This document shows positions 7,385-28,528 of a stretch of DNA of 64,000 nucleotides, one piece after another. Position 1 is the stretch's first letter; each line of letters starts with the position of its first letter. The stretch spans positions 647,353 to 711,352 of the forward strand of contig JAJVIF010000001.1 of NCBI GenBank assembly GCA_022072165.1. The letters are read 5' to 3'. The notes beneath the pieces are model-generated. The model worked only from the letters and a program-made list of their open reading frames with translations. It had not been told where the DNA came from and did no database searches. The DNA comes from a bacterium (GTDB lineage: Bacteria; JAJVIF01). The position numbers and the translations under genes were made by a program.

Positions 7385-9682
7385 ATGCTAGACTCCGATC
7401 GGCCTATGGGTCCGCCAAGCCTGCCAGTCAGGGGTCTGCAACACCCGGTGGAAATCCGTCGGGATGCCTATGGCGTGCCACACATCAGCGCGATGTCTGA
7501 CACCGATGCGTTTTTCTCGCTCGGCTGGGTGATGGCGACGGATCGTCTGTTCCAGATGGACCTGAATCGCCGGACCATCCTGGGACGACTCTCCGAATTG
7601 ACCACTACCGATGGGACGCTGGCTTCCGACCGGCTCTATCGGTCGCTGGGGATGCGTCAGGTCGCCGACGGCATGCTGGCGTTGCTGCCGGAGTCGACCC
7701 GAGCCCTGCTTGTTGCTTTCACTGATGGTGTGAATCGCTGGCTGGAGGCGCATCCGTCTCATCGGGAAGCGGAATACCAGGTCCTGCGCCTGGAAGAGAT
7801 CGCGCCCTGGGAGCTGACAGACTCGCTGGCGATTATTCGTCTCATTGGGTGGCAGTTGGCCGGTGACTTTGATAAAGAACTCTTCGCCTGGGACCTGGTG
7901 CGGAGCGTTGGGGCTGAACACGCCGCGCTCCTCTTTCCGGACATCCCGCCAGTCGGAGAGCGGATGAGGATGCTCCAGCAGTGGCCCCTGAGTGATGGGC
8001 AGCAACTGCACGATCTGGCGGGTGATGCGCTGGACGCACTAGGAAGAGCGGAGAACGGCACGAACATCTGGGTACTGGAGGGCTCGAAAACAGCGAATGG
8101 TAGGCCGCTGCTGGCGAATGATCCCCATCTGAATCTGGCGCAGCCGGGCATCTGGTACGAAGTCGGACTGCAATCGCCCAGCTTCAGCATCTCGGGATTC
8201 ACATTCCCCGGCATCCCATTTATCGCCATTGGACAGAACCAGCAGCTGGCCTGGGGGGCGGCGAACTGGCCTGCCGATACTCAGGACTGCTTCATCGAGC
8301 GCCTGAACCCCGCCGGGGATCAGTATCAGGACGCGACGGGGGGCTGGTCGCCGTTAGAGCTAAGCACCGAGGTTTTGCACTGTCGGGGGCGAGATGATGA
8401 AACGTTGATGGTGCGTCGGACACCCCGGGGCGTGATTGTGCGGGTGGAACCCGATGGGACAGCGCTGGCACTCCGCTGGACCGGGTTTGAGGCCTCGGAT
8501 GAACTGACTGCCTTTTTAAGGGCATCGCAAGCGACGACGCTGACCGACTGGCTGGCAGCGTTCGACGGCTACGCCTGCCCGACACAGAACTTCTACTGCA
8601 TCCACAGGAGCGAGGGGATTGCCGGGATCCATGCTGGCGCGGTACCTCGCCGCACGCGGGGGGAGTCTTCGTTTCCTCAGGAGGCTCACGATCCGGCAGC
8701 TGCCTGGGAGGGGCTCCTGCCGGCGGCGGAGTTTGGTCCGCGTCGGGGCTCGGGCGGGGCTGGCTGGCTCGCGAACGCGAACAATAAGCCGCTGGAAGCG
8801 GCCTCGGGAGCGCCGAGCGGGGTCCGGTTTACTCCCCCACTTCGGTATCGCCGGATTCAGGAGCTGCTCTCAGCTCAGGATGGCTGGACCGTCGAGGCGA
8901 CGCGCCAGATGCAGACCGACACGGTCAATCTCGCAGCGCGGGACCAGCTGGTGCTCCTGCGACAGCATCCGGCAGCTCAGGCGTGCAGGTATGAAGACCC
9001 GGTGATCGCAACCGGATGGTCGCGACTGCTCGCCTGGGATGCGGATCATTGCAGCGACCCCACCAGCGCAGCCCTCTGGCATGCCCTCACCCTGGAACTG
9101 GCGCGGTTGCTCTGCGAGCCCCTCATGGGGCTGGAGCTCTGGTCGCGCTTTCAGGATCTGCATGACCCGCAGCACCTGCTGTTGATCGCCTGGCTGGAAG
9201 GGGGACTGACGGAGTCGCTGGACCTGCCCGTACCAACCCCAGAGCTGTTGCAACAGGCCTTTTTGCAGGCCTGGCGGGACCTGGTGATTCTGGCGGGAGA
9301 CGATTCGACATCGTGGGACTGGGCCGAGATCCACGCCATGCGGTTGCGACATCCGATGGGGCTGCCGGTCGGGCGTGCTGAGGGGCTACGGATTCCGCAT
9401 CCGGGGGGACGGCACACCCTTAACGTGGGGAATTTCTGGCCAAGCCAGGGGTGGCGTTGCAGTCATGGGGTCAGCCTGCGGTACATCGCCTGGGTGAATG
9501 ACACCGGCGTGCTGCGAAGCGAGTCCCTGGTGCTCCCTGGGACTGCGGGGGATCCGGCCAGTCCCCATGCAGATGATCAGATCGGGCTGTTTCAACGAGG
9601 AGTCCTGCGGGAACGTCCTGTGACAGCTGAGGCTATTGCTCAGCTTCCACTGGAAGTGATCCTGACTCCAGATTCTGCGTGA
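7385..9682 (+). CDS. Penicillin acylase family Ntn-hydrolase with Thr at nucleophile site
   Basis: A 765-residue protein of the penicillin amidase (S45) family, which cleaves amides such as penicillins and acyl-homoserine lactones after self-processing into two chains. The N-terminal domain shows VEIRRDAYGVPHI and the chain-junction block is GTNIWVLEGSKTANG, then RPLLANDPHLNL and PGIPFIAIGQNQQLAWGAAN. The family nucleophile is Ser in G-S-N; here it is Thr (about residue 226). No signal peptide is visible, unlike most periplasmic members. The start could be ATG 7385 or, 21 bp later, ATG 7406, which has a TAGACT -10-like box 11 bases before it. It is divergent from tldD with a 42-bp gap. Confidence 0.88.
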   Translation: MLDSDRPMGPPSLPVRGLQHPVEIRRDAYGVPHISAMSDTDAFFSLGWVMATDRLFQMDLNRRTILGRLSELTTTDGTLASDRLYRSLGMRQVADGMLALLPESTRALLVAFTDGVNRWLEAHPSHREAEYQVLRLEEIAPWELTDSLAIIRLIGWQLAGDFDKELFAWDLVRSVGAEHAALLFPDIPPVGERMRMLQQWPLSDGQQLHDLAGDALDALGRAENGTNIWVLEGSKTANGRPLLANDPHLNLAQPGIWYEVGLQSPSFSISGFTFPGIPFIAIGQNQQLAWGAANWPADTQDCFIERLNPAGDQYQDATGGWSPLELSTEVLHCRGRDDETLMVRRTPRGVIVRVEPDGTALALRWTGFEASDELTAFLRASQATTLTDWLAAFDGYACPTQNFYCIHRSEGIAGIHAGAVPRRTRGESSFPQEAHDPAAAWEGLLPAAEFGPRRGSGGAGWLANANNKPLEAASGAPSGVRFTPPLRYRRIQELLSAQDGWTVEATRQMQTDTVNLAARDQLVLLRQHPAAQACRYEDPVIATGWSRLLAWDADHCSDPTSAALWHALTLELARLLCEPLMGLELWSRFQDLHDPQHLLLIAWLEGGLTESLDLPVPTPELLQQAFLQAWRDLVILAGDDSTSWDWAEIHAMRLRHPMGLPVGRAEGLRIPHPGGRHTLNVGNFWPSQGWRCSHGVSLRYIAWVNDTGVLRSESLVLPGTAGDPASPHADDQIGLFQRGVLRERPVTAEAIAQLPLEVILTPDSA

Positions 9683-13787: not shown

Positions 13788-13927
13788 GCGCTGAAGACTC
13801 CTTCCAGCCCTGCAGGAGGGCTCTGGTGCGATGATCGGGATTGTAGCGGGATTTCGCGGCCGTGAGTGCTATCCTGCGTTTTCGCAGGGCCATGACCGGG
13901 GCCATCGCTGCTTGCAAGGAGGCTGGT

Positions 13928-15856
13928 ATGGCCGGACCGACGCCTGTAGTTCCCTGGCTGAATGCACTGGCGCTGCTGGTACTGGGACTGGATATACTGG
14001 CGCTGACGGTCATTCCTCCCGCCCTGCGGCATGACACGGTGCCACAGCAGGTCCTGAACTTCGCTGAGCATCTCCCCACGGTCCGCAGGCGAAGTGGCGA
14101 TACCGAGTTAGTGACTCAGCTGGTTCGTTCCCTGAGCCTGGAGCAGAAGGTCGGTCAGCTGCTCCTGATTGGAGGCTGGGAAGCCCCAACCAGCGAGATT
14201 CCTGAGGCGATCCAGCGCTGGCATTTGGGAAATCTGGTCCTGAATGATGAAGGCTTGCAGGGACTGCAGGACCTGGCGGAGCTGACATGGGACAGTCAGG
14301 AAGTCGCACGCTCCCAAAATGCCGGGGTCCCTCTGCTGATCGCGGCACGACAGGAAGGTGGCGGATACGACGCGCTCCGGGTGCCGGGGCTCGTGCGCCT
14401 CCCTTCGCCAGGCGACCTTGGAGAATATGCCAAGGCCGAAGAAGTCGAGCGCGCATACGGCTATTTGGCGGGCGAGCTGGCGGCACTGGGCATCAATACC
14501 GTGCTGGCCCCCAATCTGGACCTCGCGACGGAAGCACGGAATCCGCTGGCCGAGGAAGAGCGTCTGTTTGGAGCATCGAGCCGGGTCGTGACCCAAAGTG
14601 GACTGGCGGCAATCGCCGGCCTGCAAAATGGTGGAGTCCTGGCGTGTGCCCGGCAGTTCCCGGGAGTCGGGGCCGCCACCACCGATGTTTCCCGTTCACT
14701 GACCCTGATCCGGCTTTCCCTGAACGATCTGGAATCGAGTGATCTGGAGCCCTTCAGGAAAGCCATCAGCAATGAAGTCGCACTCATACAGGTGGGTCCT
14801 GCCTGCTATCCGCTGCTGCAGGGAGAGCGCCATGAGCCAGCCTTCCAGTCCCGGGCGATGGTACAGAGTCTCCTGCGCGACCGACTGCAATACACCGGCG
14901 TCGTTGTCACGGGGGATCTGGCAGATCCTGCTGCCGATCAGGATGCCGGGATGCGCCTGGACCGGGCGATTGCGGCACTGAAGGCCGGGTGCGACCTGCT
15001 GCTCTATACCGGTGGCACTGAAGGGGCCGAGGCACTGGCCGAGGGGTTGGTCGAAGCGGTGACCACCGGCACACTCCCGGTGGAGATTGTCGATACAGCA
15101 GTGAGTCGGATCCTGCGACTGAAGTCGGCCTATGAGCTCTTCGCAGCGACGCAGGACCCGCCAGTGTTTCTGGCAACCGGGGAGTTGCCGGACCGCCAGG
15201 TCCATCGCCAGGGGATCGGGCAACTCTACGAGAACATGGAGTTTCGCCAAAATCCGAATCAGGCGGCGAAGGTGGTCCGGGGAGGGAGCACGCCACTACC
15301 GATTCCCCTGCATCCTTCGGCGCGACTGCTGGTGGTCCATGTTGACCGGCAGGATTTTCCCTCGCGCTACAGGGGACTCACGGTCGGTGAACTGGTGCAG
15401 GAGCGCTTCCCGGCAGCGCTGGATTTTCCGGTGACACTGCTCCCAGGTGAGAAGGAAAAGGAACTCGAAGCGTTGGGAGCACTGGCACCGACAGCGGATG
15501 TCATTTTGCTGGCCACCTGGAAGCAGCTCGGCCCGGGGCAACGGCAGCTCTTCCAGACAGTCAGCAAGAGTGGTCGTCCAGTGGTAGTCCTGAGTCGCTT
15601 TGAGAATGAGAAAGACAATGTCGAGATGCCGGAAGGGACCATTCAGTACTACTGGGTGCTGAACAACTCCCGGAGTGTCCTGGGAGCCCTGGATCAGTGC
15701 TTCTCGGAGCTGATTCTTCCGCCACCCCTCACTAGCGAGCCCTCGCAGGGGGGGACCACTGCGTTGCCGATGCCCTCAGCGATTCCATCGCCTGGAGGGC
15801 CTGACCCGCTGGTGGAAGCCGATGCGTCCGGGGAAGGACCGCTCCATCTTGACTAG
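13928..15856 (+). CDS. Membrane-anchored GH3-like protein (degenerate NagZ type)
   Basis: A 642-residue protein. The start at 13928 is chosen for the AAGGAGG six bases upstream; longer in-frame starts exist at 13862 and 13892. A hydrophobic anchor (WLNALALLVLGLDILALTVI) at about residues 8-30 suggests an extracytoplasmic GH3 domain. The fold is recognisable: LSLEQKVGQLLLIG, ELAALGINTVLAPNLDL, SLLRDRLQYTGVVVTGDL and a GH3 C-terminal domain with ADVILLATWK. Key NagZ motifs are altered: the substrate-binding DQEGGR reads ARQEGGG, KHFPGHG reads RQFPGVG, and the nucleophile block TDDL/TDAL reads TGDL. It may be inactive or altered in specificity. It overlaps the NamZ-like gene by 35 bp. Confidence 0.8.
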   Translation: MAGPTPVVPWLNALALLVLGLDILALTVIPPALRHDTVPQQVLNFAEHLPTVRRRSGDTELVTQLVRSLSLEQKVGQLLLIGGWEAPTSEIPEAIQRWHLGNLVLNDEGLQGLQDLAELTWDSQEVARSQNAGVPLLIAARQEGGGYDALRVPGLVRLPSPGDLGEYAKAEEVERAYGYLAGELAALGINTVLAPNLDLATEARNPLAEEERLFGASSRVVTQSGLAAIAGLQNGGVLACARQFPGVGAATTDVSRSLTLIRLSLNDLESSDLEPFRKAISNEVALIQVGPACYPLLQGERHEPAFQSRAMVQSLLRDRLQYTGVVVTGDLADPAADQDAGMRLDRAIAALKAGCDLLLYTGGTEGAEALAEGLVEAVTTGTLPVEIVDTAVSRILRLKSAYELFAATQDPPVFLATGELPDRQVHRQGIGQLYENMEFRQNPNQAAKVVRGGSTPLPIPLHPSARLLVVHVDRQDFPSRYRGLTVGELVQERFPAALDFPVTLLPGEKEKELEALGALAPTADVILLATWKQLGPGQRQLFQTVSKSGRPVVVLSRFENEKDNVEMPEGTIQYYWVLNNSRSVLGALDQCFSELILPPPLTSEPSQGGTTALPMPSAIPSPGGPDPLVEADASGEGPLHLD

Positions 15857-17105
15857 TCAGTACTCCCGACGATCCATCCTCGCCGCAGGAGTCGGTGGCG
15901 CGCTGGCCCTGGCCAGTCGTCCTCACATGGCATTCGGAACGGATGTCGCGGTTCCGGTTGTCCTGCCAGGACTCGATGTCCTGGCGCTTCAGCACCGGGA
16001 GCGTCTGACCGGAAAGCGGATCGGGCTGGTCTGCAATCACACGGCCACTACCGCGACCGGGGTCCATGCGATTGACCTCCTGCGAAGTTTTCCCGAAACA
16101 ACGCTGGTCTCGTTGTTCGCACCGGAACATGGACTCAAAGGGCGTGTCATCGCGGGCAACATTGCAGACAGCGTGGATGAGGCGACCGGCTTGCCGGTCT
16201 GGTCGCTGCATGGAACCCACCGGAAGCCGACTCCGGCCATGCTCAAAGGTCTCGATCTGGTACTGATCGACCTGCAGGATGTCGGTGCCCGCTTCTACAC
16301 CTATTCCAGCACCCTGGCGCTGGTGATGCAGGCCGCAGGGGCGCAAGGGCTGCCTGTTCTCGTCCTTGACCGTCCGAATCCCATTGGTGGCGACGCCCTG
16401 CATGGACCCTTGCTGGATCCCGCGAGTGCCTCGTTCCTGGGGTACTACCCGGTACCGGTCCGCCATGGCCTCACGGTGGGCGAGTTTGCCCGTCTGGTGC
16501 AGGGAGCGTATGGCGTCGCCTGCGAGCTGGACGTCATCCCGATGCATGGCTGGCGTCGCGGGTTCTACTGGGCGGAAACGGGCCTGCCCTGGCAGCCCCC
16601 TTCACCGAGTCTGTGGCGTCCGGAAGCAACCATCACCTACCCCGGCATCTGCTTTTTCGAGGGAACCAACTGCTCGGTCGGTGGATCGACGTTCTATCCC
16701 TATGAGGTTGTAGCCGCGCCCTGGATCGATGGTGCTGGCCTTGCGGCGACTCTCAATGGGCAGGGATGGGCCGGTGTCAGATATGAAGCGATCAGCTATA
16801 CGCCGGAAAAGCCCAATGATGGGAAGTACCAGGGCGAAGTCTGTCAGGGCGTGTGGCTGCAGTTAACGGACCGGCAGCGTTTTGATCCGGTCGTCGCGGC
16901 CTGTGCGGTCCTGCGGCAGGTGCATCGGGATTACAGCGACAAACTGACCTTCAGAAAGCCACACATGCGTTTGCTGGGGGGCTCTGACACCTTCCTGGAG
17001 ACGCTCCTAAACGCACCTGGACTGCGGGGACTCGCCGCCATCTGGGAGGCCGAGTGCGCTGCTTTCGACCAGCTCCGGTCACCCTACCTGCTGTACTCGA
17101 CGTAG
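15822..17105 (+). CDS. namZ: NamZ-like exo-N-acetylmuramidase (DUF1343), Tat-exported
   Basis: A 427-residue DUF1343 protein. Characterised members (NamZ/YbbC) remove N-acetylmuramic acid from the non-reducing end of peptidoglycan fragments. Family blocks are intact: GLVCNHTATTATGVHAIDLL, FAPEHGLKG, TGLPVWSLHG, IDLQDVGARFYTYSSTL, VLDRPNPIGGDALHGPLLD, VPVRHGLTVGEFA, and FFEGTNCSVGGSTFYPYE. The N-terminus has a twin-arginine signal YSRRSILAAGVGGALAL, so export folded through Tat is likely. The gene overlaps the GH3-like gene, mirroring the nagZ-namZ association known in Bacillus peptidoglycan recycling. GGTGGAAG precedes the start. Confidence 0.88.
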   Translation: MRPGKDRSILTSQYSRRSILAAGVGGALALASRPHMAFGTDVAVPVVLPGLDVLALQHRERLTGKRIGLVCNHTATTATGVHAIDLLRSFPETTLVSLFAPEHGLKGRVIAGNIADSVDEATGLPVWSLHGTHRKPTPAMLKGLDLVLIDLQDVGARFYTYSSTLALVMQAAGAQGLPVLVLDRPNPIGGDALHGPLLDPASASFLGYYPVPVRHGLTVGEFARLVQGAYGVACELDVIPMHGWRRGFYWAETGLPWQPPSPSLWRPEATITYPGICFFEGTNCSVGGSTFYPYEVVAAPWIDGAGLAATLNGQGWAGVRYEAISYTPEKPNDGKYQGEVCQGVWLQLTDRQRFDPVVAACAVLRQVHRDYSDKLTFRKPHMRLLGGSDTFLETLLNAPGLRGLAAIWEAECAAFDQLRSPYLLYST

Positions 17106-17943: not shown

Positions 17944-19167
17944 ATGGCTCTGACTCCGGCTGCGGCCCAGGCATTACTGATGGAACTGGCGACTCCGCTC
18001 CCGGCGGAGGCAATCGGCCTGCTGCAGGCGCGGGGACGGATTCTGGCAGCCCCTGTCGTAGCGGACCGCGATTTGCCAGCCAGCGACCGGTCGGCCATGG
18101 ATGGCTACGCCTGCCGGGCCAGTGACACGGCAAGTCCACAGCAGCCACTTCAGGTATTGGGGACAGTGGCCGCCGGTAATCCCCCATCGCTCACGATTTC
18201 CCCGGGCACTAGCGCGAGGATTTACACCGGTGCGGTGATTCCGCCAGGGGCGGATTGTGTGGTGATGCAGGAAGTGGCGGAAGCCGGCCCAGAGGGATCA
18301 GTTCTGTTTCGTGTTCCCGCTACGGCTGGTCAGCACATCCTGCGACGCGGGGAAGATGCCCAGGCCGGCCGGCAAGTATTGCCCTCAGGAGGCGTTCTGG
18401 GAGCAGCGCAACTTTCGGTCTGTGCTGCGGTGGGCCAGGATCCGGTACCGGTATTCGGACAGCCCCGAGTCCGGCTGATCCCGACCGGTTCAGAGCTGAA
18501 ACGTGCAAGCGATCCGGTTGAAGATCACGAGCTGCGAGAGACCAACAGCTACGCCGTACGTGGGCTCATCGAAACACTGACTCCGGCGCAAGTCATGGTG
18601 GAGGCCCCACTGCCAGATGACCCCTCGCTTCTGCGAGCAGCGCTGGCAACGGCGGCGTCATCCGCCGACGTGGTGGTTACGATTGGTGGAGCGAGTGTTG
18701 GTCCACGCGATTTTCTGGCTGGGGTGGTCCGGGAGCTGGGGGGGACAATCCATGCGGATCGTCTGCTGATGAAGCCCGGGAAGCCGGTGGTCCTGGCGAC
18801 TCTGGGGAACGCGCTGCTGTTAGGGCTGCCGGGCTCTCCCCTCGCCTGTCTGACCGCAGCACGGATCCTGTTGGTTCCACTGTTATTGCGTCTGGCAGGA
18901 CATGCAGCGCCTCTGAGGGCAGCGCAAATCACCGCGCGTCTGACAACCCAGGTGATGAACAAGCCTGGCAGGACTCGCTTCCTGCTGGTGCGCCTGACTC
19001 CGGATGATGCCGGGGTGTTGCGGGCGACACCGGTGCAGACTGCCTCGGTGGCGGACCTGGTCGCTGCCGCGACTGCCGATGCCCTGCTGGAACTGCCAGC
19101 GGAGACTGACACTGCGCTTCGCGATACGCCATACCGCTGCTGGATGCTTCATGGGTGGCCGGTGTGA
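17944..19167 (+). CDS. moeA: Molybdopterin molybdenumtransferase MoeA
   Basis: A 407-residue MoeA. It inserts molybdate into adenylylated molybdopterin in Moco synthesis. Domains in order: N-terminal LPASDRSAMDGYACRA (domain III/I signature), the GTVAAGNPP-type linker, IYTGAVIPPGADCVVMQE, HILRRGEDAQAG, the MoCF-like core RLIPTGSELK and VVTIGGASVGPRDF, MKPGKPVVLATLGNALLLGLPGSPLACL, and the C-terminal beta-barrel. Length is standard. It overlaps the MobB-MobA gene by 13 bp and faces the Mo-dependent formate dehydrogenase genes, its likely client. Confidence 0.95.
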   Translation: MALTPAAAQALLMELATPLPAEAIGLLQARGRILAAPVVADRDLPASDRSAMDGYACRASDTASPQQPLQVLGTVAAGNPPSLTISPGTSARIYTGAVIPPGADCVVMQEVAEAGPEGSVLFRVPATAGQHILRRGEDAQAGRQVLPSGGVLGAAQLSVCAAVGQDPVPVFGQPRVRLIPTGSELKRASDPVEDHELRETNSYAVRGLIETLTPAQVMVEAPLPDDPSLLRAALATAASSADVVVTIGGASVGPRDFLAGVVRELGGTIHADRLLMKPGKPVVLATLGNALLLGLPGSPLACLTAARILLVPLLLRLAGHAAPLRAAQITARLTTQVMNKPGRTRFLLVRLTPDDAGVLRATPVQTASVADLVAAATADALLELPAETDTALRDTPYRCWMLHGWPV

Positions 19168-20192
19168 GTGGTGTCGAGTTCTCGCTGCCGCCGGTAGTCG
19201 GGATCGCCGGCTGGTCCAACTCTGGCAAGTCCACCATGATCTGTCAGCTCCTGCAGGATGAGCGATTACGCGACTGGCGACTGGGAGTCATCAAGCATTG
19301 CCATCATTCGCTGAAAGAGAGCGAAGAGAGCGACACCGCCCGGTTCCTCGCGGCAGGGGCACAGGTCGCGGTCCCCTGGGTCGCAGGAGATCTGGGTACA
19401 GCAGCCCTTGCAGATGCAGCGCTCGCGGCTGCCCTTGAGTCACTCAGCAACCTGACGCTGGATGGGGTCCTGGTGGAGGGGTTCAAGCGGGGCTCGCATC
19501 CTCAGATATGGATAGATCAGAGCGAGGGGCCACCGTCGGAGATCGCTGATCGCGTCCTGCACTGCCCCGATTCCGACGCACTGCTCCCCCTGGTTGTGAA
19601 TCTGCTCTGGCGGGGTCGGACTGTGCGGGCGGGGATTCTGGTTGGTGGCCAAAGCCAGCGGATGGGCCGGCCCAAAGCGTTGATCCCCGTAAATGGGGCA
19701 GCTCTTTGGCGAAAACTTCAAGCCTCATGTACATTAAATAGACTTAATGCTGTACTCATTGGGGAGCTACCGGGAGTCCCTACGGGATTGGTGGATGCTG
19801 ACTTTCCCGGGCCAGTCGGGGGGCTCATCGCCGCTGTTCGGGCTGACCCCAATGCTGCGTGGCTGATGTTGCCCTGCGATCTCCCCTGCTGGTCAGAGGC
19901 CGCGGCAAGCTGGCTCCTGGAGCAACGTCGCCCCGGGGCGCGCGCCATCATGCCGCGCCTCGGAGACCACGCCCTCCCCTTCCCGGCAATCTATGAGCCG
20001 GGGCTGCTGGCCGATCTGCTGTCGCGGGGTGCGGACCTGCGGTGGAGTCCGCAGCGATGGCTGAACAGTCGCCGCGATGTGATCCGGGTACCTGTACCCG
20101 AAGAACTCGTACGGGCGTTCACTTCGGTCAATACACCGGAAGAATGGATTGCGCTGTTGGGGTCCCCACCATTGCCCTCACAGGGAGATTAG
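19155..20192 (+). CDS. mobA: MobB-MobA fusion, molybdenum cofactor guanylyltransferase
   Basis: A 345-residue two-domain protein. Residues ~10-150 are MobB: P-loop GIAGWSNSGKST, then LGVIKHCHH and LVEGFKRG. Residues ~160-340 are MobA: AGILVGGQSQRMGRPKALIPVNG (nucleotide-binding signature GGxSxRMGxxK), a shortened central part, and LMLPCDLPCWSE (metal-binding Asp). MobA makes the guanine dinucleotide form of Moco required by formate dehydrogenase; MobB assists. The start is GTG 19155 or GTG 19164, the latter overlapping the moeA stop as GTGA, so translational coupling is likely. Fused MobBA or MobAB forms are known. Confidence 0.9.
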   Translation: MAGVSGVEFSLPPVVGIAGWSNSGKSTMICQLLQDERLRDWRLGVIKHCHHSLKESEESDTARFLAAGAQVAVPWVAGDLGTAALADAALAAALESLSNLTLDGVLVEGFKRGSHPQIWIDQSEGPPSEIADRVLHCPDSDALLPLVVNLLWRGRTVRAGILVGGQSQRMGRPKALIPVNGAALWRKLQASCTLNRLNAVLIGELPGVPTGLVDADFPGPVGGLIAAVRADPNAAWLMLPCDLPCWSEAAASWLLEQRRPGARAIMPRLGDHALPFPAIYEPGLLADLLSRGADLRWSPQRWLNSRRDVIRVPVPEELVRAFTSVNTPEEWIALLGSPPLPSQGD

Positions 20193-20235: not shown

Positions 20236-23124
20236 CTACTCGGCGACCGGAAGCGGCACGCTTCGGGGGGTCTCCCGGAGCAGACGGGCATGTTCCATGG
20301 CGGCCTGATCCTGCCCGACCCGTTGGAGCCAGGCCTGGGTCGCCTGCGCCTGCTCAGCTGGCGTGAGTGGTTCCACGGCGACCGCGACGACCTTGTACTC
20401 CGGGCACTTGGTGTTCATCTCCCGGACATTGCTGGTGAGGAGATTGATCAGGACATCGGGGAAATGGAAGGTCAGGAAAAGGGTGCCAGGGTTGACCCAG
20501 GAGGTGACATCTACCGCCACCTCTACGGCACCGCGCCGGGAGCGCAGACGCACATAGTCCCCTTCGCCTACCCCCAGACGAGCGGCATCCTCTGGATGGA
20601 GCTCCAGCAGGTCGCGGGTGATGAGGAGGGTGTTGTTGGTCCGGCGGGTCATGGTGCCAGAGTTGTAATGCTCCAGGAGGCGTCCGGTGGTCAGGAGGAA
20701 GGGGAATTCCGCAGTCACCGCCTCTTCAGTCGGCACATAGTCCGCGGTTACCAGGTGGCCGCGTCCGCGACTAAACCGGCCTTCCTCATGGACGATGGGT
20801 GTTCCCGGATGGTCGGCATGGGGGACCGGCCACTGGAGGCCTTCGCCGGCCCGGAGACGTTCCGGCGACAGGCCGCGCCAGGCTGGCCAGATGGCTGCGA
20901 TCTCCTCGAGAATCTCATCGGGGGACTCGTACTGCCAGTTTGCCCCCATGGCGTTCGCCACCGCCTGCGTGATCTGCCAGTCGGGCCGGGCCTCCCCCGG
21001 GGAATCGATCACTTTGCGGATGAGCTGGACTCGTCGTTCCGAATTGGTAAAGGTCCCCTGCTTTTCCAGGAAGCTGGCACCTGGGAGAACGACATGGGCA
21101 TACTGCGCGGTTTCGGTGAGGAAGATCTCCTGGACGATGAGGAGGTCGAGCTGCTCCATCGCCCGGATGACATGGGCGGAGTTGGGGTCCGTCTGGACCA
21201 CATCCTCCCCGACCAACCAGAGGGCTTTGAGTTGGCCGGCAATGGCCGCATCGAACATATCCGGGATGGTGAGGCCTGTATGCGGATTCAACTTCGTGCC
21301 CCAGAGGTCCTGAATGGTTGCCATCACTTCCGGGTGTGTGAGGGGCTGATAGCCCGTGACGAGATCCGGCATGGCTCCCATGTCAGCAGCGCCCTGCACG
21401 TTGTTCTGCCCCCGGAGGGGATTCACCCCGACACCGGGACGTCCGACATTTCCGGTCAGCATGGCGAGGTTCGCGAGGAGCATGACGCCGAAAGAGCCCT
21501 GGTAATGCTCGGTGACCCCGAGTCCGTGGAACATCATGGAGCCGCCGCTGGTGGCGTAAAGACGGGCCGCTGTCCGGATGTCTTCAGCATCGACCCCACA
21601 AATCGGCGCGGCCCACTCGGGTGTTTTATCGGCGATGAAGGCGCGGTAGTCCTCCCAGCCGTCGGTGCAGTTTGCGATGAATTCTTCATCGCACAGCCCT
21701 TCGGTGACGATCACATGGGCGAGGGCGTTGAAGAGGGGGACATTGGTGCCGGGCTTCAGGGCGAGGTGGACATCTGCCATCTGCGCGAGTTCAGTCGCCC
21801 GGGGGTCTATGACAATCAGCCGGGCACCGTTGAGGACTGCCTGCTTCATCCGGGCTCCCACCACCGGGTGCCCATGGGTCGGGTTCGCCCCGACTATCAT
21901 CAGCAACTTTGCCTGATCGATGTCATCGAAGCTGTTGGTGGCCGCGCCGGTCCCGAAGGTGGTTCGCATCCCGAAAGCAGTCGGGCTGTGGCAGACCCGG
22001 GCGCAGCAGTCGATGTTGTTGCCGCCGATGACGCTCCGGATGAACTTCTGCATGAGGAAGTTCTCTTCGTTCGTACAGCGAGCGGACGAAATCCCCGCAA
22101 TGGCTTCCGGACCATGCGCATCGCGAATAGCGGTCAGCCGACTCGCGACAAAGGCGATGGCGTCTTCCCAGGTGGCAGGCTCCAGCGCACCAGACTCCGG
22201 GTTCCGGAGGAGCGGGGTGGTCAGGCGATCATCGGACTGGGCATACTGGAAAGCGAAGCGCCCCTTGAGGCACAGATGTCCGTGGCTGGAGGCGGCCTGA
22301 TCGGCCGGCTTGACTGCAATCGCCCGGTTGTTCTTCACCTGCACCAGGAATCCGCATCCGACCCCGCAATAGGAGCAGGTGGTCCGGACTTCGCGGTCCA
22401 CCCGCTGATCGGGGAACTCCAGGAATCCCTTGTCGAAGATGGCCCCGGTTGGGCAGGTATGGGCACAGGCGCCGCAGGAGACGCAGTCGGAGGCGTTGAA
22501 GTCGCCATAGGCACCGGGCACGGCGACCGAGTCGAAGCCGCGACTCTGGATGGTGAGGGCAAATGTGCCCTGCACCTCATCGCAGGCCCGGACACAGCGG
22601 CTGCAGACAATGCAGCTGTCGAGATCGAGTCCCAGGTAGGGGTGGTCGGTGTTGAAGCCCGGGGGCTGTCCGGGAAGTGCGGTCAGGGAGTCGATCTTCT
22701 GGGCCCCCGCCGGGAACCGACTGCTGCTGGCTTTTGTTTGGCGCACCACCGCGTGAAACTCGTTGTGGCCGTAGTGACGCCTATCGAAGAGATCATCCGG
22801 CAGATCGGACATCAGCAATTCGACTGTCGTACGGCGCAGGCGCTCCAGGCGCGGCGACTCCGTGAGAATCACCATCCCATCGGTGACGGGGGTGTGGCAG
22901 GCAGCGACCGGCTTCGGACGTCCCTCGATTTCCACCATGCAGACCCGGCAGGCTCCAAAGGGATCAAGCTTGGGGTCATAGCAGAGGGTCGGGACGTGGT
23001 GCCCGGCGTATCGCCGGGTGACTTCGAGAATCGTTTCGCCCGGACGGGCTTCTACGGTCTGCCCGTTCAGCTGACAGGTCCATGCGGCTGCCGATGGTTG
23101 CGACTGGTCAGTGTGAGAAGTCAT
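20236..23124 (-). CDS. fdhA: NAD-type formate dehydrogenase, molybdenum catalytic subunit
   Basis: A 962-residue Mo/W-bis-MGD enzyme. Iron-sulfur centres in order: an N-terminal NuoG-like 2Fe-2S (CYDPKLDPFGACRVC ... AACHTP), two 4Fe-4S (CIVCSRCVRACDE and CVSCGACAHTCP), then the CSYCGVGC 4Fe-4S next to the cofactor. The active-site block is NIDCCARVCHSPTAFGM, with Cys (not Sec) as the Mo ligand followed by the catalytic His. MIVGANPTHGHPVV and the C-terminal dinucleotide-binding domain complete the fold. It is translationally coupled to the NuoE-NuoF fusion (ATGA overlap at 23121-23124), so the complex should transfer electrons from formate to NAD+. No fdhD is in the window. Confidence 0.93.
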   Translation of the reverse strand: MTSHTDQSQPSAAAWTCQLNGQTVEARPGETILEVTRRYAGHHVPTLCYDPKLDPFGACRVCMVEIEGRPKPVAACHTPVTDGMVILTESPRLERLRRTTVELLMSDLPDDLFDRRHYGHNEFHAVVRQTKASSSRFPAGAQKIDSLTALPGQPPGFNTDHPYLGLDLDSCIVCSRCVRACDEVQGTFALTIQSRGFDSVAVPGAYGDFNASDCVSCGACAHTCPTGAIFDKGFLEFPDQRVDREVRTTCSYCGVGCGFLVQVKNNRAIAVKPADQAASSHGHLCLKGRFAFQYAQSDDRLTTPLLRNPESGALEPATWEDAIAFVASRLTAIRDAHGPEAIAGISSARCTNEENFLMQKFIRSVIGGNNIDCCARVCHSPTAFGMRTTFGTGAATNSFDDIDQAKLLMIVGANPTHGHPVVGARMKQAVLNGARLIVIDPRATELAQMADVHLALKPGTNVPLFNALAHVIVTEGLCDEEFIANCTDGWEDYRAFIADKTPEWAAPICGVDAEDIRTAARLYATSGGSMMFHGLGVTEHYQGSFGVMLLANLAMLTGNVGRPGVGVNPLRGQNNVQGAADMGAMPDLVTGYQPLTHPEVMATIQDLWGTKLNPHTGLTIPDMFDAAIAGQLKALWLVGEDVVQTDPNSAHVIRAMEQLDLLIVQEIFLTETAQYAHVVLPGASFLEKQGTFTNSERRVQLIRKVIDSPGEARPDWQITQAVANAMGANWQYESPDEILEEIAAIWPAWRGLSPERLRAGEGLQWPVPHADHPGTPIVHEEGRFSRGRGHLVTADYVPTEEAVTAEFPFLLTTGRLLEHYNSGTMTRRTNNTLLITRDLLELHPEDAARLGVGEGDYVRLRSRRGAVEVAVDVTSWVNPGTLFLTFHFPDVLINLLTSNVREMNTKCPEYKVVAVAVEPLTPAEQAQATQAWLQRVGQDQAAMEHARLLRETPRSVPLPVAE

Positions 23125-24929
23125 GAGTCTGCAGGACCTCGCTGCTCTGAAGTTCCGGTCGCCGCATCAGGCGCTGCTGGGGGAAGCAATTCATGTCGCC
23201 AATGCCGCAGGATGCTGTAGATGGCTGCCGGGACCCCGCCGCCAAGGGCGCAGAGGCTGCCGAGTTCCATCGTCTCCAGCAGGTCCTCCAGCAGCTGGAG
23301 TTCCGCCTCCGACCGTCTGTTTGCCTGCGGCAGGCGATCGAGTAACTCGACACCCCGCACGCTACCGATCCGGCAGGGGACACACTTGCCGCAGGACTCA
23401 TCAGCGGTGAACTCGAACAGGTGCCTGGCCAGATCGATCATGTTGACGCGGTCATCGATGGCGACAACACTGCCATGTCCAAGCAAACCTCCGACTCGCG
23501 CGAGTTCCTCAAAGCCCAGCGGAGTATCGAGGTCCTCGGGTGGCAAAATGCCTCCCATGGGACCACCGATCTGGACACCTTTCAGGATGAGAGTGTCGCG
23601 CAGGCCCCCGCCGAGTTCTTCGATGATCGTGCGTAAGGAGGTCCCCAACGGGACTTCGTAGAGTCCCGGTCTGGCGAACAGGGAGTTGAGGGACACGGCT
23701 TTGGTGCCCCGGGAGCGTCCGATGCCAATGGCGGCGTAGGCGGCTCCACCATGCGTCAGGATCCAGTCGATGTTCGCCAGGGTTTCGACATTGTTGACGA
23801 CAGTCGGCTTGCCATAGAGCCCCTTCTCCGCCGGAAAGGGTGGCCGGACAGAGACTTCGCCCCGCAGTCCCTCGATGGACCGGAGCATGGCAGTCTCTTC
23901 GCCGCAGACATAGGCCCCTGCTCCCAGAAAGAGCCGTACCTGGAACGATTTCCCGGACCCGAGGATGTCGCTCCCCAGGAGTCCTGCGGCGGTGGCTTCA
24001 GCGATGGCGGTCTTCAGGATCGCGATGGCTTCGGGGTACTCAGAGCGGAGGTAGATGACACCTTCAGTCGCGCCGATAGCGAGGCCGGCGATCGCCATAC
24101 CCGCCAGGAGTCCGTGCGGGTCCCGCTCCATGAGGAGCTTATCGATGTAGGAACCGGGGTCGCCCTCATCGGCGTTACAGCAGACAAACTTTTGATCGGC
24201 GTCGTAGCCGGCGGCGAAACTCCACTTTTGGCCGGTCGGGAATCCCGCGCCGCCCCGGCCACGGAGTCCGGAGGTTTTGACTTCTTCAATGATCTGGGCA
24301 TTTGTCATCTGCAGGGCTTTGCGGAGTCCCTCATACGCTCCCCCTGCCAGGGCAGTTGCCAGATCTGTTGCACTGGCACCTCGGTCCATGCGGCGGAGCA
24401 GGATGACCGGATCGCTGTGCGCCTCGACTCGCACCTCCTGGGGCTGACTGACCGGCTCGCCTGCGCGAGCCAGTTGGAGGAGTCCCGGCAGTTCAGCGGG
24501 CGTCACCCGGTCGACGACTTCCCGGCTGGTGCCCCGCTGCATCATGAGGCTGGGTGCAGCATGGCAGCGTCCGAGGCAATAGACCCGCTCCAGCGAGAAG
24601 GCTCCATCAGAGGTGACCTGTCGATGGCAGATCTGGAGGGCTTCCTCGAGAGCTGCGCCTGTTTCCCCGGCCCCATCAACAAGGCAGGCGGTCCCCTGGC
24701 AACAGAGAATGCGTGTCTGCCCGACAGTCTGGGGATGGGTGTCCTCGTAGAAGGTCGCGACACCATGCAACAGCGCCACTGGCAGCCCGATTTCGCTGGC
24801 CAGGGCATCGATTTCGCCTGGAGTCAGGGGGCGTCCGAGCAACGCCATCCGCTCCTGCACTGCACGCAGCGCATTGGATTCCCGGTCAGGATGCCGGTCA
24901 TGCAGGAAGGTCATCAGACGCTGCGACAT
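23121..24929 (-). CDS. Fused NuoE-NuoF-like diaphorase subunit of formate dehydrogenase
   Basis: A 602-residue protein starting at ATG 24929. Residues ~1-160 are a NuoE-like thioredoxin-fold 2Fe-2S domain (CCQGTAC ... CLGRCHAAP). Residues ~220-590 are NuoF: the NADH/FMN site GLRGRGGAGFPTGQKW and CNADEGDPGSY, GAGAYVCGEETAML, and a 4Fe-4S site ESCGKCVPCRIG. NuoE and NuoF are usually separate; here they are one chain, as in some NAD-reducing formate dehydrogenases and hydrogenases. It feeds the formate dehydrogenase subunit downstream. There is no Shine-Dalgarno; a TACAAT -10 box lies 6 bases before the ATG. Divergent from the oxoprolinase gene. Confidence 0.93.
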   Translation of the reverse strand: MSQRLMTFLHDRHPDRESNALRAVQERMALLGRPLTPGEIDALASEIGLPVALLHGVATFYEDTHPQTVGQTRILCCQGTACLVDGAGETGAALEEALQICHRQVTSDGAFSLERVYCLGRCHAAPSLMMQRGTSREVVDRVTPAELPGLLQLARAGEPVSQPQEVRVEAHSDPVILLRRMDRGASATDLATALAGGAYEGLRKALQMTNAQIIEEVKTSGLRGRGGAGFPTGQKWSFAAGYDADQKFVCCNADEGDPGSYIDKLLMERDPHGLLAGMAIAGLAIGATEGVIYLRSEYPEAIAILKTAIAEATAAGLLGSDILGSGKSFQVRLFLGAGAYVCGEETAMLRSIEGLRGEVSVRPPFPAEKGLYGKPTVVNNVETLANIDWILTHGGAAYAAIGIGRSRGTKAVSLNSLFARPGLYEVPLGTSLRTIIEELGGGLRDTLILKGVQIGGPMGGILPPEDLDTPLGFEELARVGGLLGHGSVVAIDDRVNMIDLARHLFEFTADESCGKCVPCRIGSVRGVELLDRLPQANRRSEAELQLLEDLLETMELGSLCALGGGVPAAIYSILRHWRHELLPPAAPDAATGTSEQRGPADS

Positions 24930-24935
24930 ACAGGC

Positions 24936-24941
24936 ATTGTA
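24936..24941 (-). promoter_or_regulatory. -10 box TACAAT, leaderless start of NuoE-NuoF gene
   Basis: TACAAT on the minus strand with a 6-base gap to the ATG at 24929, placing the expected transcription start at or next to the A of the ATG. Confidence 0.6.
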
Positions 24942-24982
24942 CCGGCTTCCAGCAACGAAACGGGAAGGCGCGTCAGGTGGTC

Positions 24983-24988
24983 TACTAT
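24983..24988 (+). promoter_or_regulatory. -10 box TACTAT, leaderless start of oxoprolinase gene
   Basis: TACTAT with a 6-base gap to the ATG at 24995. It forms a divergent pair with the TACAAT at 24936, only 41 bp between the two boxes. Confidence 0.6.
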
Positions 24989-24994
24989 CGCGCC

Positions 24995-27900
24995 ATGCAG
25001 GTCGCCATCGACACCGGAGGAACATTCACCGACTGCCTGGGATGGTGTCAGGATGGGCGCTTCCTGGAGATCAAGGTCCCTTCCCGTCCGGCAGCCCCGG
25101 CGGAGGCGATTCTCGACGGGCTGCGAGCGCTGGCCAGACTGGCCCCGGCGGAGCCGATTACCCGCATCGTGCATGGTTCCACCATCGCGACCAATGCCCT
25201 GCTGGAAGGGACAGAAAACTCCGCACTGCTGATCCTGCCCAGAGGCTTCGAAGACCTGCTGGAGCTGGCACGACAGCAACGTCCTGATCTTTACTCGCTC
25301 CATCCAGTACTGCCGCCGCCAGCGATGCGCCGGAGTCAGGTTGTTGGCATTCCGGCCCGGCTGCTGGCGGATGGGAGCTATGCCGAGCACTGGTCGCCTG
25401 AAAACCTCGATCAACTGATCCGTGATGTAGAGGAATGGGGGGAATGCACAGCGATCGGCATCTGCCTGCTCCATGCCCACCGATTTCCCGCAGCGGAGCA
25501 GGAGCTCGCGGCGTCATTGCGGGAAGCAGGATTGCCGGATGAGATTGCCATCACGCTCTCCTCTGATTTAAGTCGGGAGGCGGGGGAGTATGAGCGGGCG
25601 ACTACTACGGCCATCAATGCGCGCCTTCTCTCTCCGGTTGGGACGTACTTGCGACATCTGGAGTCTGCGGTGAGACAGGAGTTTCCTGGCGCGTCACTGG
25701 AGGTCGTGTTGTCGAATGGTGACGCCCTGCCGGCAGGTGAAGCCGCGCTGGTGCCGGTACGGATGCTTCTTTCCGGCCCGGCAGGGGGCGTGCAGTTTGG
25801 ATGGCAGCTCTCGCAAGCGCTGGATCAGCCGGTGATCACCCTCGACATCGGCGGGACGTCGACTGATGTCGCCTGCGTTCCTGCGGAACCGTTGGTACGA
25901 CAGGGGGGGCAGGTCGGACCATATCCCGTCCGGACCGCCATGCTCGATATCGAGACCATCGGTGCCGGGGGAGGCTCCATCATCTGGCTGGATCAGGGCG
26001 GTGCCCTGCAGGTCGGCCCCCAATCGGCAGGTGCGATGCCGGGTCCGGCCTGTTATGGCCGGGGCGGCGCGTTGCCGACACTGACAGATGCCCATCTCCT
26101 GCTGGGGCATCTCTCTACGACCGAGCCTCTGGCTGGAGGATTACAACTGCGTCTGGAACTGGCGGAAGCCGCATTCGCGCCCCTTGTCAGCCGGACAGAT
26201 TTGTCAGTCCACGCTTTGGCGAGCGGTGCCATTGCCATCGCAAACCAACGGATCGCCCAGGCCATTCGCGCTATTTCCTCCCGACGTGGCCTGGATCCCA
26301 CCGACTGTGCGCTGGTCCTTATGGGCGGGGCGGGCGGACTGCATGGCGCGGGTGTCGCGCAGCTGCTGGGGATTTCCAGTCTGGTATTGCCGCCCCATCC
26401 GGGATTGGCGAGCGCTCACGGGCTGGCGTCGTGTGGCTATGCGGTCCGCCGAGTCCTGCAACTGGAGAGCATGAGCCTGGCGCAGCCTTTGGAAGCGGCG
26501 CAGCAGACTTTGCGAACGATGGTCGTGGCCGCCTGGTCGCCGGTTGCCCCTTGTTCGATGGAAGCAGCGACCGAGGTCTGGACCGCCCATGTGCGATTCG
26601 CCGGGCAGGACCGCACCATCGCCCTGCCCCTGCTGCCGATCGAATCGTTGGACTCCCGCTTCCGTGAACTTGCGATGACGAGGCTCGGGATTGCCAGAAA
26701 TTCCCTGCCGCTGGAATTGATGCGGCTGGAGCTGGGCGTACTGGCTCCACGACGTCCCTGGCCGCTGCAGGGTACACAGGACTTCGATTCCCAGCGACTG
26801 CAGGAGGGGAGCATTGAAGAAGACCTCCTCATCCACGGTCGCTCGTCCACTACGCTGATTCCTGCGGGCTCCACCCTGGAACAGCGCCCCGGGCTGCAGG
26901 TTTTCCACCTGCCGGAGGCAGCAGTTGCTCAGGAGCCGACAGCCGGGGTCGCAGTCGAAGTCACACTTGCAGCGGATCGACTTGGTGCGATCGCGGAAGA
27001 GATGGCGGAGGTCCTGGAGCATCTCGGGCACTCATCGAACATCAAGGACCGGCGCGACCTCTCGACCGCGATTTTTGATGAGACTGGTGAAGTCCTGGCG
27101 CAGGGTGCTCATATACCGGTCCATCTGGGGAGTATGGGCGCGAGTGTGGCGGCTGCCAGGTCTGCACATGCGATGCAGCCGGGCGATGCGATCCTGCTGA
27201 ATTCCCCCTTCGCCGGTGGCACCCATCTGCCGGACCTCACACTGGTGAGCTGTGTGGCCATCGGCGACGGCAAATTGGCATATGTCGCTTCCCGGGCACA
27301 TCACGCGGACATCGGAGGTATCGCCCCCGGGTCAATGCCCCTGAGCAGTCATGCGGATGATGAAGGATTGCTGATCCCACCCACTTTGGTGGCGCGGCAT
27401 GGTCAATTTATCGTAGCAGAACTCAGCAGGATTGCGGCAGCATCGCGACAGCCACAGGAGCGGACCGGCGATTTGCTGGCGCAACTGGCCGCCAATCAAC
27501 GGGGGGCGGCACTGTTGCAGGAACTGGTGAAGTCGTACGGCCAGTCGCGCTGGCAACAGATCGCAGGGGAGCTGTCCGCTTATGGTGCGGAGTTGTTGCA
27601 ATCCACCCTGCGACGCTGGGCTCCGGGTACGCAGCCAGCCACAGTCGTGCTCGAATCAGATGGGCTCGGTGAGACCGACATCCCACTGCAGGTGACGGCG
27701 ACATTGCGCGAAGGTGTTGCAGGGCATCGGATCCTCGCGTTTGACTTCACTGGCACCAGCGAGCCTGTGGAAGGCCCGGTGAATTGTCCACGGGCGGTGG
27801 TGCTGGCAGCAATCTCGTTTGTCCTGCGCTGTCTGATGCCGCCGGAAGCGCTGTCGATGTCCGGAGTGCTCCGGAATGTCGAAATCCATATTCCATCCCC

Positions 27901-28528
27901 TTCGCTCCTGGATGCGTCCTATCCGGCTGCCACCGCCGCGGGCAATGTGGAGACCTCTCAGAAGCTGGTCGTCCTGCTGATAAAGGCGCTGCATCCGTTC
28001 GTGCGAGACGGGTTGCCACGGCCATCGCAGGGGACGATGAACAACCTCCTCCTGGGAGGCAAGACGCTTACTGGCGAGAGCTATACCTACTACGAGACGC
28101 TTGCGGGAGGCTGCGGGGCGGGCCCTCACGGCGAAGGAGCCAGTGCGGTCCATTCCCACATGACCAACTCCCGGAACACACCGATTGAGGTGCTGGAGTC
28201 ACGCTTTCCGCTGGTGATCGAGCAGTACGCCCTGCGTGCCGAATCAGGAGGATGGCCCCGGAGCGAGCGGGGCTACTTTGGGGGGCTGGGAGTCCAGCGA
28301 GCCTATCGCTTCCTCACCGATGCCACCCTGACGCTACTGGCGGACTGGCCGCGACATAACGACCAACTGGGTCCCAAAGCTGGGGCTGCCTACCTGCTCC
28401 TTACCGATGACACTCTTGAGCCGCTCCCTTCAAAAGTCTCCAGGGAGGTGACGGCGGGGATGATCCTGCTGCTGGCGACGCCCGGCGGGTGGGCCTGGGA
28501 TCCTCCAACGGGATCGGACCACCAATAG
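24995..28528 (+). CDS. Fused HyuA-HyuB protein, 5-oxoprolinase/N-methylhydantoinase family
   Basis: An 1177-residue ATP-dependent amidohydrolase. The frame is open further upstream, but the protein clearly starts at MQVAIDTGGTFTD (24995), the HyuA nucleotide-binding N-terminus. HyuA continues with HGSTIATNALLEG, LSGPAGGVQFG and TLDIGGTSTDVACV. From about residue 665 the HyuB half shows GHSSNIKDRRDLSTAIFD, IPVHLGSMGASV, NSPFAGGTHLPDL, RAHHADIGGIAPGSMP, and GGCGAGPHGEGASAVHSHMT. The length and one-chain layout match eukaryotic-type and many bacterial 5-oxoprolinases, which hydrolyse 5-oxoproline to glutamate; the substrate is not proven. Gamma-glutamyltransferase (54381) in the same window would be metabolically compatible. 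Confidence 0.88.
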   Translation: MQVAIDTGGTFTDCLGWCQDGRFLEIKVPSRPAAPAEAILDGLRALARLAPAEPITRIVHGSTIATNALLEGTENSALLILPRGFEDLLELARQQRPDLYSLHPVLPPPAMRRSQVVGIPARLLADGSYAEHWSPENLDQLIRDVEEWGECTAIGICLLHAHRFPAAEQELAASLREAGLPDEIAITLSSDLSREAGEYERATTTAINARLLSPVGTYLRHLESAVRQEFPGASLEVVLSNGDALPAGEAALVPVRMLLSGPAGGVQFGWQLSQALDQPVITLDIGGTSTDVACVPAEPLVRQGGQVGPYPVRTAMLDIETIGAGGGSIIWLDQGGALQVGPQSAGAMPGPACYGRGGALPTLTDAHLLLGHLSTTEPLAGGLQLRLELAEAAFAPLVSRTDLSVHALASGAIAIANQRIAQAIRAISSRRGLDPTDCALVLMGGAGGLHGAGVAQLLGISSLVLPPHPGLASAHGLASCGYAVRRVLQLESMSLAQPLEAAQQTLRTMVVAAWSPVAPCSMEAATEVWTAHVRFAGQDRTIALPLLPIESLDSRFRELAMTRLGIARNSLPLELMRLELGVLAPRRPWPLQGTQDFDSQRLQEGSIEEDLLIHGRSSTTLIPAGSTLEQRPGLQVFHLPEAAVAQEPTAGVAVEVTLAADRLGAIAEEMAEVLEHLGHSSNIKDRRDLSTAIFDETGEVLAQGAHIPVHLGSMGASVAAARSAHAMQPGDAILLNSPFAGGTHLPDLTLVSCVAIGDGKLAYVASRAHHADIGGIAPGSMPLSSHADDEGLLIPPTLVARHGQFIVAELSRIAAASRQPQERTGDLLAQLAANQRGAALLQELVKSYGQSRWQQIAGELSAYGAELLQSTLRRWAPGTQPATVVLESDGLGETDIPLQVTATLREGVAGHRILAFDFTGTSEPVEGPVNCPRAVVLAAISFVLRCLMPPEALSMSGVLRNVEIHIPSPSLLDASYPAATAAGNVETSQKLVVLLIKALHPFVRDGLPRPSQGTMNNLLLGGKTLTGESYTYYETLAGGCGAGPHGEGASAVHSHMTNSRNTPIEVLESRFPLVIEQYALRAESGGWPRSERGYFGGLGVQRAYRFLTDATLTLLADWPRHNDQLGPKAGAAYLLLTDDTLEPLPSKVSREVTAGMILLLATPGGWAWDPPTGSDHQ

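What the first reader, a model, noticed from the sequence alone, without database searches (positions are those of the whole stretch)
13928..17105. GH3 protein with degenerate catalytic motifs coupled to an intact NamZ-like muramidase
In Bacillus, NagZ (GH3) and NamZ act together to dismantle peptidoglycan from the non-reducing end. Here the genes overlap, but the GH3 partner lost the canonical DQEGGR, KHFPGHG and TDDL/TDAL sequences (ARQEGGG, RQFPGVG, TGDL). It may have become a membrane-bound binding or scaffold partner for the exported NamZ-like enzyme.
Basis: partly seen in the sequence, partly recalled or inferred. Interest (0 to 1): 0.55.

Follow-up and report, generated by a model that had tools for sequence, protein, structure and literature searches.

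The report
Dead NagZ-like protein beside NamZ
Next to a cell-wall-sugar-cutting enzyme gene, this bacterium carries a relative of a second cutting enzyme that has kept its fold but lost nearly all of its active site, so it probably no longer cuts and may serve as a non-catalytic partner; it is an unusual local variant of a well-known gene pair.

Summary
Confirmed: 13928-15856 (+) encodes a two-domain NagZ-type GH3 protein and 15822-17105 (+) a NamZ, overlapping by 35 bases. The GH3 active site is gone: in place of the sugar-binding Asp, the Lys-His pair, the dyad His and the nucleophile Asp it has Arg, Arg-Gln, Ser and Gly; 84 of 84 other GH3 domains keep the Asp, the Lys-His and the nucleophile. 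Gly351 aligns with residue 318 of B. subtilis NagZ. The fold is kept (best PDB match B. subtilis NagZ, Z 51.1), and an intact second GH3 lies elsewhere in the genome. Of 180 other NamZ loci, 39 carry a GH3 in the flank, none so degenerate. So it is a pseudo-NagZ, seen here once. Two corrections: the NamZ is not fully ordinary (it misses 4 of 28 near-invariant columns; 0 of 184 others do), and most GlcNAc-binding residues are lost too, so a GlcNAc-binding role like that of fungal Ngs1 is unlikely. A non-catalytic partner of NamZ is my best guess, unproven; a decaying relic is the main rival. New variant of a known kind; moderate interest.

The parts
13916..13922 (+). Shine-Dalgarno-like AAGGAGG, 5 bases before ATG 13928
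   Evidence: read from sequence
13928..15856 (+). degenerate two-domain NagZ-type GH3 protein (642 aa from ATG 13928; 664 aa if GTG 13862 is used). Residue numbers in this report count from GTG 13862
13958..14014 (+). N-terminal hydrophobic stretch LNALALLVLGLDILALTVI, possible membrane anchor (contains one Asp; no clear positive n-region if translation starts at 13928)
   Evidence: Kyte-Doolittle mean 2.37
14138..15121 (+). GH3 N-terminal (beta/alpha)8 domain, residues 93-420
   Evidence: PF00933 2.5e-48; model and PDB match
14348..14350 (+). R163 in place of the sugar-binding Asp (DQEGG -> RQEGG)
   Evidence: Asp in 84 of 84 others
14651..14656 (+). R264-Q265 in place of Lys-His (KHFPG -> RQFPG)
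   Evidence: K and H each in 84 of 84 others
14690..14692 (+). S277 in place of the His of the Asp-His dyad (DxH -> DVS; D275 kept)
   Evidence: His in 83 of 84 others; dyad described in PMC5063960 and PMC4974736
14798..14800 (+). P313 in place of an invariant His
   Evidence: His in 84 of 84 others
14912..14914 (+). G351 in place of the nucleophile Asp (TD(D/A)L -> TGDL)
   Evidence: Asp in 84 of 84 others; aligned to the mutated residue 318 of B. subtilis NagZ entry 3lk6
15266..15658 (+). C-terminal alpha/beta domain as in two-domain NagZ
   Evidence: model strands and helices 399-529; alignment to B. subtilis NagZ over model residues 5-547
15822..15856 (+). 35-base overlap of the GH3 and NamZ reading frames
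15822..17105 (+). NamZ-like exo-beta-N-acetylmuramidase (427 aa from ATG; TTG 15849 is another possible start)
   Evidence: PF07075 1.9e-75, PF20732 1.8e-37; model pLDDT 87.8
15864..15881 (+). SRRSIL, twin-arginine-like motif ahead of a hydrophobic stretch
   Evidence: read; motif recalled, export not tested
16209..16211 (+). NamZ H130 where others have Tyr
   Evidence: Tyr in 186 of 186
16683..16715 (+). NamZ G288, S289, Y294, A298: altered EGRGTTRPFExxG stretch
   Evidence: R 160 of 185, G 184 of 185, F 184 of 185, G 183 of 185 in others

Best explanation
A NagZ-type GH3 glucosaminidase, inherited or acquired as the usual neighbour of NamZ, has become a pseudoenzyme. SHOWN by sequence and fold: nucleophile, dyad His and most GlcNAc-binding residues are replaced while the two-domain fold, reading frame and overlap with namZ are kept, and an intact second GH3 exists elsewhere in the genome. 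INFERRED: it does not hydrolyse GlcNAc-MurNAc, and the intact GH3 supplies any NagZ activity. INFERRED, weaker: the protein is kept because it acts as a non-catalytic partner, made in coupled translation with NamZ and tethering, stabilising or positioning it at the cell envelope.
For: Loss of the site: 53 of 53 other distinct GH3 rows keep Asp, Lys-His and nucleophile Asp; 84 of 84; alignment to residue 318 of B. subtilis NagZ. Fold kept: pLDDT 76.8, pTM 0.75; 4gyj, Z 51.1, 513 aligned. Frame open over 642 codons with ordinary codon-position composition. Overlap of the two genes. GH3 and NamZ as neighbours elsewhere: 39 of 180 NamZ loci, GH3-first on the same strand in many Bacillota as here; in G258 and G086 both domains lie in one reading frame (983 and 1390 aa, and 75 for G258), so the two families do work together. 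Intact second GH3, L002.
Against: No ortholog of the degenerate form was found: the best match in 385 genomes has 35% identity and no listed row exceeds 38%, none by pattern scan of genome contigs, and the three other genomes of its phylum have neither family. So purifying selection could not be tested and a partner role has no comparative support. The NamZ itself has unusual residues, as if the pair were drifting. The GH3's membrane anchor is not certain. Nothing shows physical contact.
Confidence: 0.45

Rival explanations
1. Relic: the GH3 gene lost its activity because an intact, probably exported NagZ exists elsewhere, and it is drifting while its upstream position still feeds translation of namZ. 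It has no protein-level function.
For: Intact second GH3 in the genome; losses spread beyond the active site (16 of 49 conserved columns); a very long branch (2.06 changes per column); namZ too departs from its family; MurQ and AnmK not found at their cut-offs in the genome, so the classical use of the products may be missing.
Against: A 642-codon frame without a stop or frameshift, at such divergence, with ordinary codon-position composition and a foldable two-domain protein, is unlikely for an unselected gene. The other GH3 of the genome, which is intact, has a branch just as long (2.49), so a long branch alone is no sign of decay.
Confidence: 0.22
2. Repurposed pocket: the barrel binds another ligand (a modified cell-wall sugar or other glycan) and acts as a lectin-like or sensor domain, as fungal Ngs1 does for GlcNAc.
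For: Precedent: Ngs1 is a NagZ-like GH3 protein without hydrolase activity that binds GlcNAc (PMC5063960, passages). R234 and D275, equivalents of Ngs1 R145 and D186, are kept.
Against: Ngs1 needs its D74, R145 and K175-H176; the window has lost the equivalents of D74, K175 and H176. No attached signalling domain was found.
Confidence: 0.18
3. Still an enzyme, with a different chemistry or with shifted catalytic residues (for example D352 of TGDL).
For: D352 lies next to the lost nucleophile; E165, D220, R234 and D275 are kept. Some GH3 NagZ relatives tolerate loss of the dyad His: one of 53 rows has Tyr, and 5bu9 shows no DSH in the printed alignment.
Against: The second position of TD(D/A/C/S)L is variable in relatives with an otherwise intact site, so D352 is the usual non-catalytic neighbour. 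Five of seven known catalytic or GlcNAc-contacting positions and two further invariant ones (H313, M355) are changed at once.
Confidence: 0.1

Closest known systems
Bacillus subtilis NagZ/YbbD (GH3, two-domain exported N-acetylglucosaminidase; 3bmx, 3lk6, 4gyj)
   Same: two-domain architecture, best structural match (Z 51.1), gene just upstream of namZ (operon ybbIHFEDC, PMC4974736 passage; ybbD = nagZ and ybbC = namZ recalled)
   Different: nucleophile, dyad His, sugar-binding Asp and Lys-His replaced
NamZ (Pfam NamZ_N/NamZ_C; GH171 by recall; DUF1343 structures 4k05, 4jja)
   Same: both domains above Pfam cut-offs; most invariant residues kept, among them E102, H103, D150, D183, R184, E221, E280
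   Different: Y130H, R288G, G289S, F294Y, G298A; 4 of 28 columns conserved at 97% or more missed, 0 of 184 others miss as many
Ngs1 of Candida albicans (GH3 pseudo-NagZ GlcNAc sensor; PMC5063960, passages read)
   Same: NagZ-like GH3 domain that lost catalytic residues
   Different: Ngs1 keeps the GlcNAc-binding D, R and KH and is fused to a GNAT domain; the window protein keeps only the R and has no such domain
GH3-NamZ neighbour pairs and fusions in other bacteria
   Same: adjacency of the two families
   Different: none of the 39 loci found here has the nucleophile Asp or Lys-His lost

Membership tests
NagZ (GH3 beta-N-acetylglucosaminidase) | GH3 N-terminal barrel domain | tested here: met
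   PF00933 165.6 bits against a cut-off of 27; match to NagZ structures
NagZ (GH3 beta-N-acetylglucosaminidase) | catalytic nucleophile Asp (residue 318 in B. subtilis NagZ) | tested here: not met
   G351
NagZ (GH3 beta-N-acetylglucosaminidase) | Asp-His dyad in KHFPGHGX4DSH | tested here: not met
   ARQFPGVGAATTDVS: Asp kept, His to Ser; motif from PMC4974736
NagZ (GH3 beta-N-acetylglucosaminidase) | GlcNAc-binding Asp, Arg and Lys-His (Ngs1 D74, R145, K175-H176) | tested here: not met
   R163, R234 (kept), R264-Q265 (Ngs1 residues; column correspondence is mine)
NagZ (GH3 beta-N-acetylglucosaminidase) | NCBIfam equivalog NF003740 cut-off | tested here: not met
   112.2 bits against 207; how two-domain NagZ proteins score on this model was not checked
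NagZ (GH3 beta-N-acetylglucosaminidase) | hydrolysis of GlcNAc-MurNAc | not testable with these tools
   needs an assay
NamZ exo-beta-N-acetylmuramidase | NamZ_N and NamZ_C domains above cut-off | tested here: met
   253.1 and 129.9 bits
NamZ exo-beta-N-acetylmuramidase | family-invariant residues | tested here: inconclusive
   24 of 28 columns conserved at 97% or more are kept, 4 changed; roles of the changed residues not known to me, founding paper not held
NamZ exo-beta-N-acetylmuramidase | release of MurNAc from non-reducing ends | not testable with these tools
   needs an assay
Ngs1-like GlcNAc sensor | intact GlcNAc-binding pocket | tested here: not met
   against residues named

The most novel reading that the evidence does not exclude
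The whole pair has left its old chemistry together: a pseudo-NagZ subunit and a NamZ with an altered conserved stretch form a two-part envelope complex that recognises or trims an unusual cell-wall sugar in a lineage for which no MurQ or AnmK was found.
Probability: 0.1. Interest if true: 0.6.

Novelty: new variant of a known kind. Interest (0 to 1): 0.36.

Why it matters
NagZ and NamZ together strip peptidoglycan chains from the non-reducing end. A case in which one partner is dead but still encoded in overlap with the other asks whether the GH3 partner has a structural role besides catalysis, something that can be tested by co-purification. It is also a bacterial counterpart, with a more thorough loss of the pocket, to the fungal GH3 pseudoenzyme Ngs1. 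The weight is limited because only one such gene was found.

Tried and rejected
Searches for an ortholog of the degenerate GH3 failed: 59 and 385 relatives, genome contigs by pattern, the phylum. A tree (the quick tree; the careful one did not finish and was not rerun) left the window GH3 unplaced on a branch of 2.06. I considered that the remaining Asp in TGDL could be the nucleophile and rejected it, since that position varies in relatives. I considered assembly error: unlikely, as the changes are many in-frame substitutions in an open frame. Rfam gave no match in the window. Paper searches listed no report of a GH3 pseudoenzyme beside NamZ; the library is partial and the NamZ founding paper is not held. 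I could not map the unusual NamZ residues on the model, as no coordinates are given out. NagK, AmgK, MurU and AmpG were not searched for.

Sampling limits: the 180 NamZ loci are best-scoring matches (100 stretches from the listed unnamed-genome hits, some genomes giving more than one; 80 named loci kept of 578), with flanks of about 4-5 kb, and some are cut by contig ends. Three stretches (L083, L211, L223) were taken longer on one side because or 24 had shown a GH3 there, and L071 has a 7-kb flank. So 39 of 180 is neither a rate nor an unbiased count. Rows dropped: L012 was read on the wrong strand and its row there is void (it was read by the profile); one search dropped rows under 250 residues and identical rows; the 45 GH3 rows include one domain split in two (L172). 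One neighbour GH3 has Asn at the dyad Asp (L124), one has KHFQG (L146) and one KHCPG (L187).

Full report
What is there. Two overlapping genes on the + strand. The first, 13928-15856 (an ATG with AAGGAGG 5 bases ahead; the longest ORF starts at GTG 13862 and I number residues from there), gives a GH3 protein with an N-terminal hydrophobic stretch, the Glyco_hydro_3 domain at 93-420 (2.5e-48), a C-terminal alpha/beta domain and a low-confidence, proline-rich tail. The second, 15822-17105, gives a NamZ with both Pfam domains and a twin-arginine-like start (SRRSIL, motif recalled). The window lies in a 3.26-Mb genome of an unnamed bacterium whose phylum holds four genomes in the set; the other three have neither GH3 nor NamZ at E 0.001.

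The active site is lost. Against 84 other GH3 domains the window changes D163 to R, K264 to R, H265 to Q, H313 to P, D351 to G and M355 to D, all invariant in 84 of 84, and H277 to S (His in 83 of 84). It keeps E165, P217, D220 and R234 (84 of 84) and D275 (83 of 84). Over 49 conserved columns it misses 16, the others at most 11 with a median of 2. In the printed alignment, G351 sits opposite the Asn of B. subtilis NagZ entry 3lk6, whose title names a mutation at residue 318; the dyad motif KHFPGHGX4DSH is given in PMC4974736 (passages). An earlier, smaller count gave the same: 53 of 53 other distinct rows keep Asp, Lys-His and nucleophile Asp; 52 keep the dyad His and one has Tyr (three further rows were the window itself).

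Single losses do occur elsewhere: the Tyr row; 5bu9, an actinobacterial structure, where the printed alignment shows no DSH; and L124, with Asn at the dyad Asp. What sets the window apart is that nucleophile, dyad His, sugar-binding Asp and Lys-His are all changed at once.

The fold is kept. An AlphaFold model from the window protein and 31 relatives has pLDDT 76.8 and pTM 0.75. Its closest solved structures are B. subtilis NagZ (4gyj and 3bmx, Z 51.1; 513 residues aligned for 4gyj, rmsd 6.4) and other N-acetylglucosaminidases; the high rmsd over two domains suggests a different domain angle or a loose model, while single-domain NagZ structures fit at 2-3 Angstrom.

The genome has another GH3, C3:334067-335062 (L002), with DQEGG, KHFPGHG...DSH and SDDL intact and a hydrophobic, signal-like N-terminus. 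Its neighbours are an RND pump, tryptophan dioxygenase and others, no NamZ. NagZ activity need not be missing from the cell. MurQ had no match over its cut-off (one 28.8-bit hit, cut-off 302) and AnmK no match, so the classical routes for MurNAc and anhydro-MurNAc are not evident.

Pairing. In 39 of 180 NamZ loci a GH3 lies in the flank, and none has lost the nucleophile Asp, the Lys-His or the dyad His (how the loci were chosen is told under Tried and rejected). Many Bacillota have GH3 first and NamZ second on one strand, as here. In G258 a 983-codon frame and in G086 a 1390-codon frame hold both domains, so the two families do belong together. The degenerate state was seen only in the window.

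The NamZ is not fully ordinary. It has His130 where 186 of 186 others have Tyr, Gly288 (others R 160, V 17, I 7, T 1), Ser289 (G in 184 of 185), Tyr294 (F in 184 of 185) and Ala298 (G in 183 of 185). Of 28 columns conserved at 97% or more it misses 4, and 0 of 184 others miss as many; at the looser 90% threshold 44 of 184 others miss as many, so the outlier status rests on the strictest columns. Acidic and histidine residues of the family (E102, H103, D150, D183, E221, E280) are kept, and the fold is clear (4k05, E 1.5e-36, TM-score 0.84 by query length; 4jja). I do not know which of these residues are catalytic; the founding paper is not held. 'Intact' is therefore too strong, and 'inactive' is not shown.

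How it most likely works. Shown: pseudo-NagZ sequence and fold in overlap with namZ. Inferred: no hydrolysis. Inferred more weakly: a kept, non-catalytic partner of NamZ. Against it stand the open 642-codon frame, ordinary codon-position composition and a foldable two-domain protein.

Verdict. Observation confirmed; interpretation partly supported; a new variant (a pseudoenzyme member) of a known gene pair; interest moderate because it is a single case with no functional evidence.

Noticed in passing
window 15822-17105: The NamZ partner departs from its family at five near-invariant positions (Y130H, R288G, G289S, F294Y, G298A).
   Followed up: partly
G258:C57 (L209:2204-5152 +) and G086:C2:211834-215721 +: GH3 and NamZ domains lie in one open frame (983 and 1390 aa), natural fusions of the pair.
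   Followed up: partly
L124, L125, L127, L129, L138: Several Gemmatimonadota loci carry two GH3 genes in tandem on the strand opposite NamZ.
   Followed up: no
window 19155-20192 +: One ORF that looks like a MobB-MobA fusion, just after a MoeA-like ORF (17944-19167); names from recall of the sequence, not searched.
   Followed up: no
window 23121-25025 -: NuoE-like and NuoF-like domains in one protein.
   Followed up: no
window 7385-9682 +, 24713-28528 +: A penicillin-amidase family protein and a fused hydantoinase A/B (oxoprolinase-like) protein.
   Followed up: no
L007 (G042): A GH3 with DSY in place of DSH, otherwise intact.
   Followed up: no
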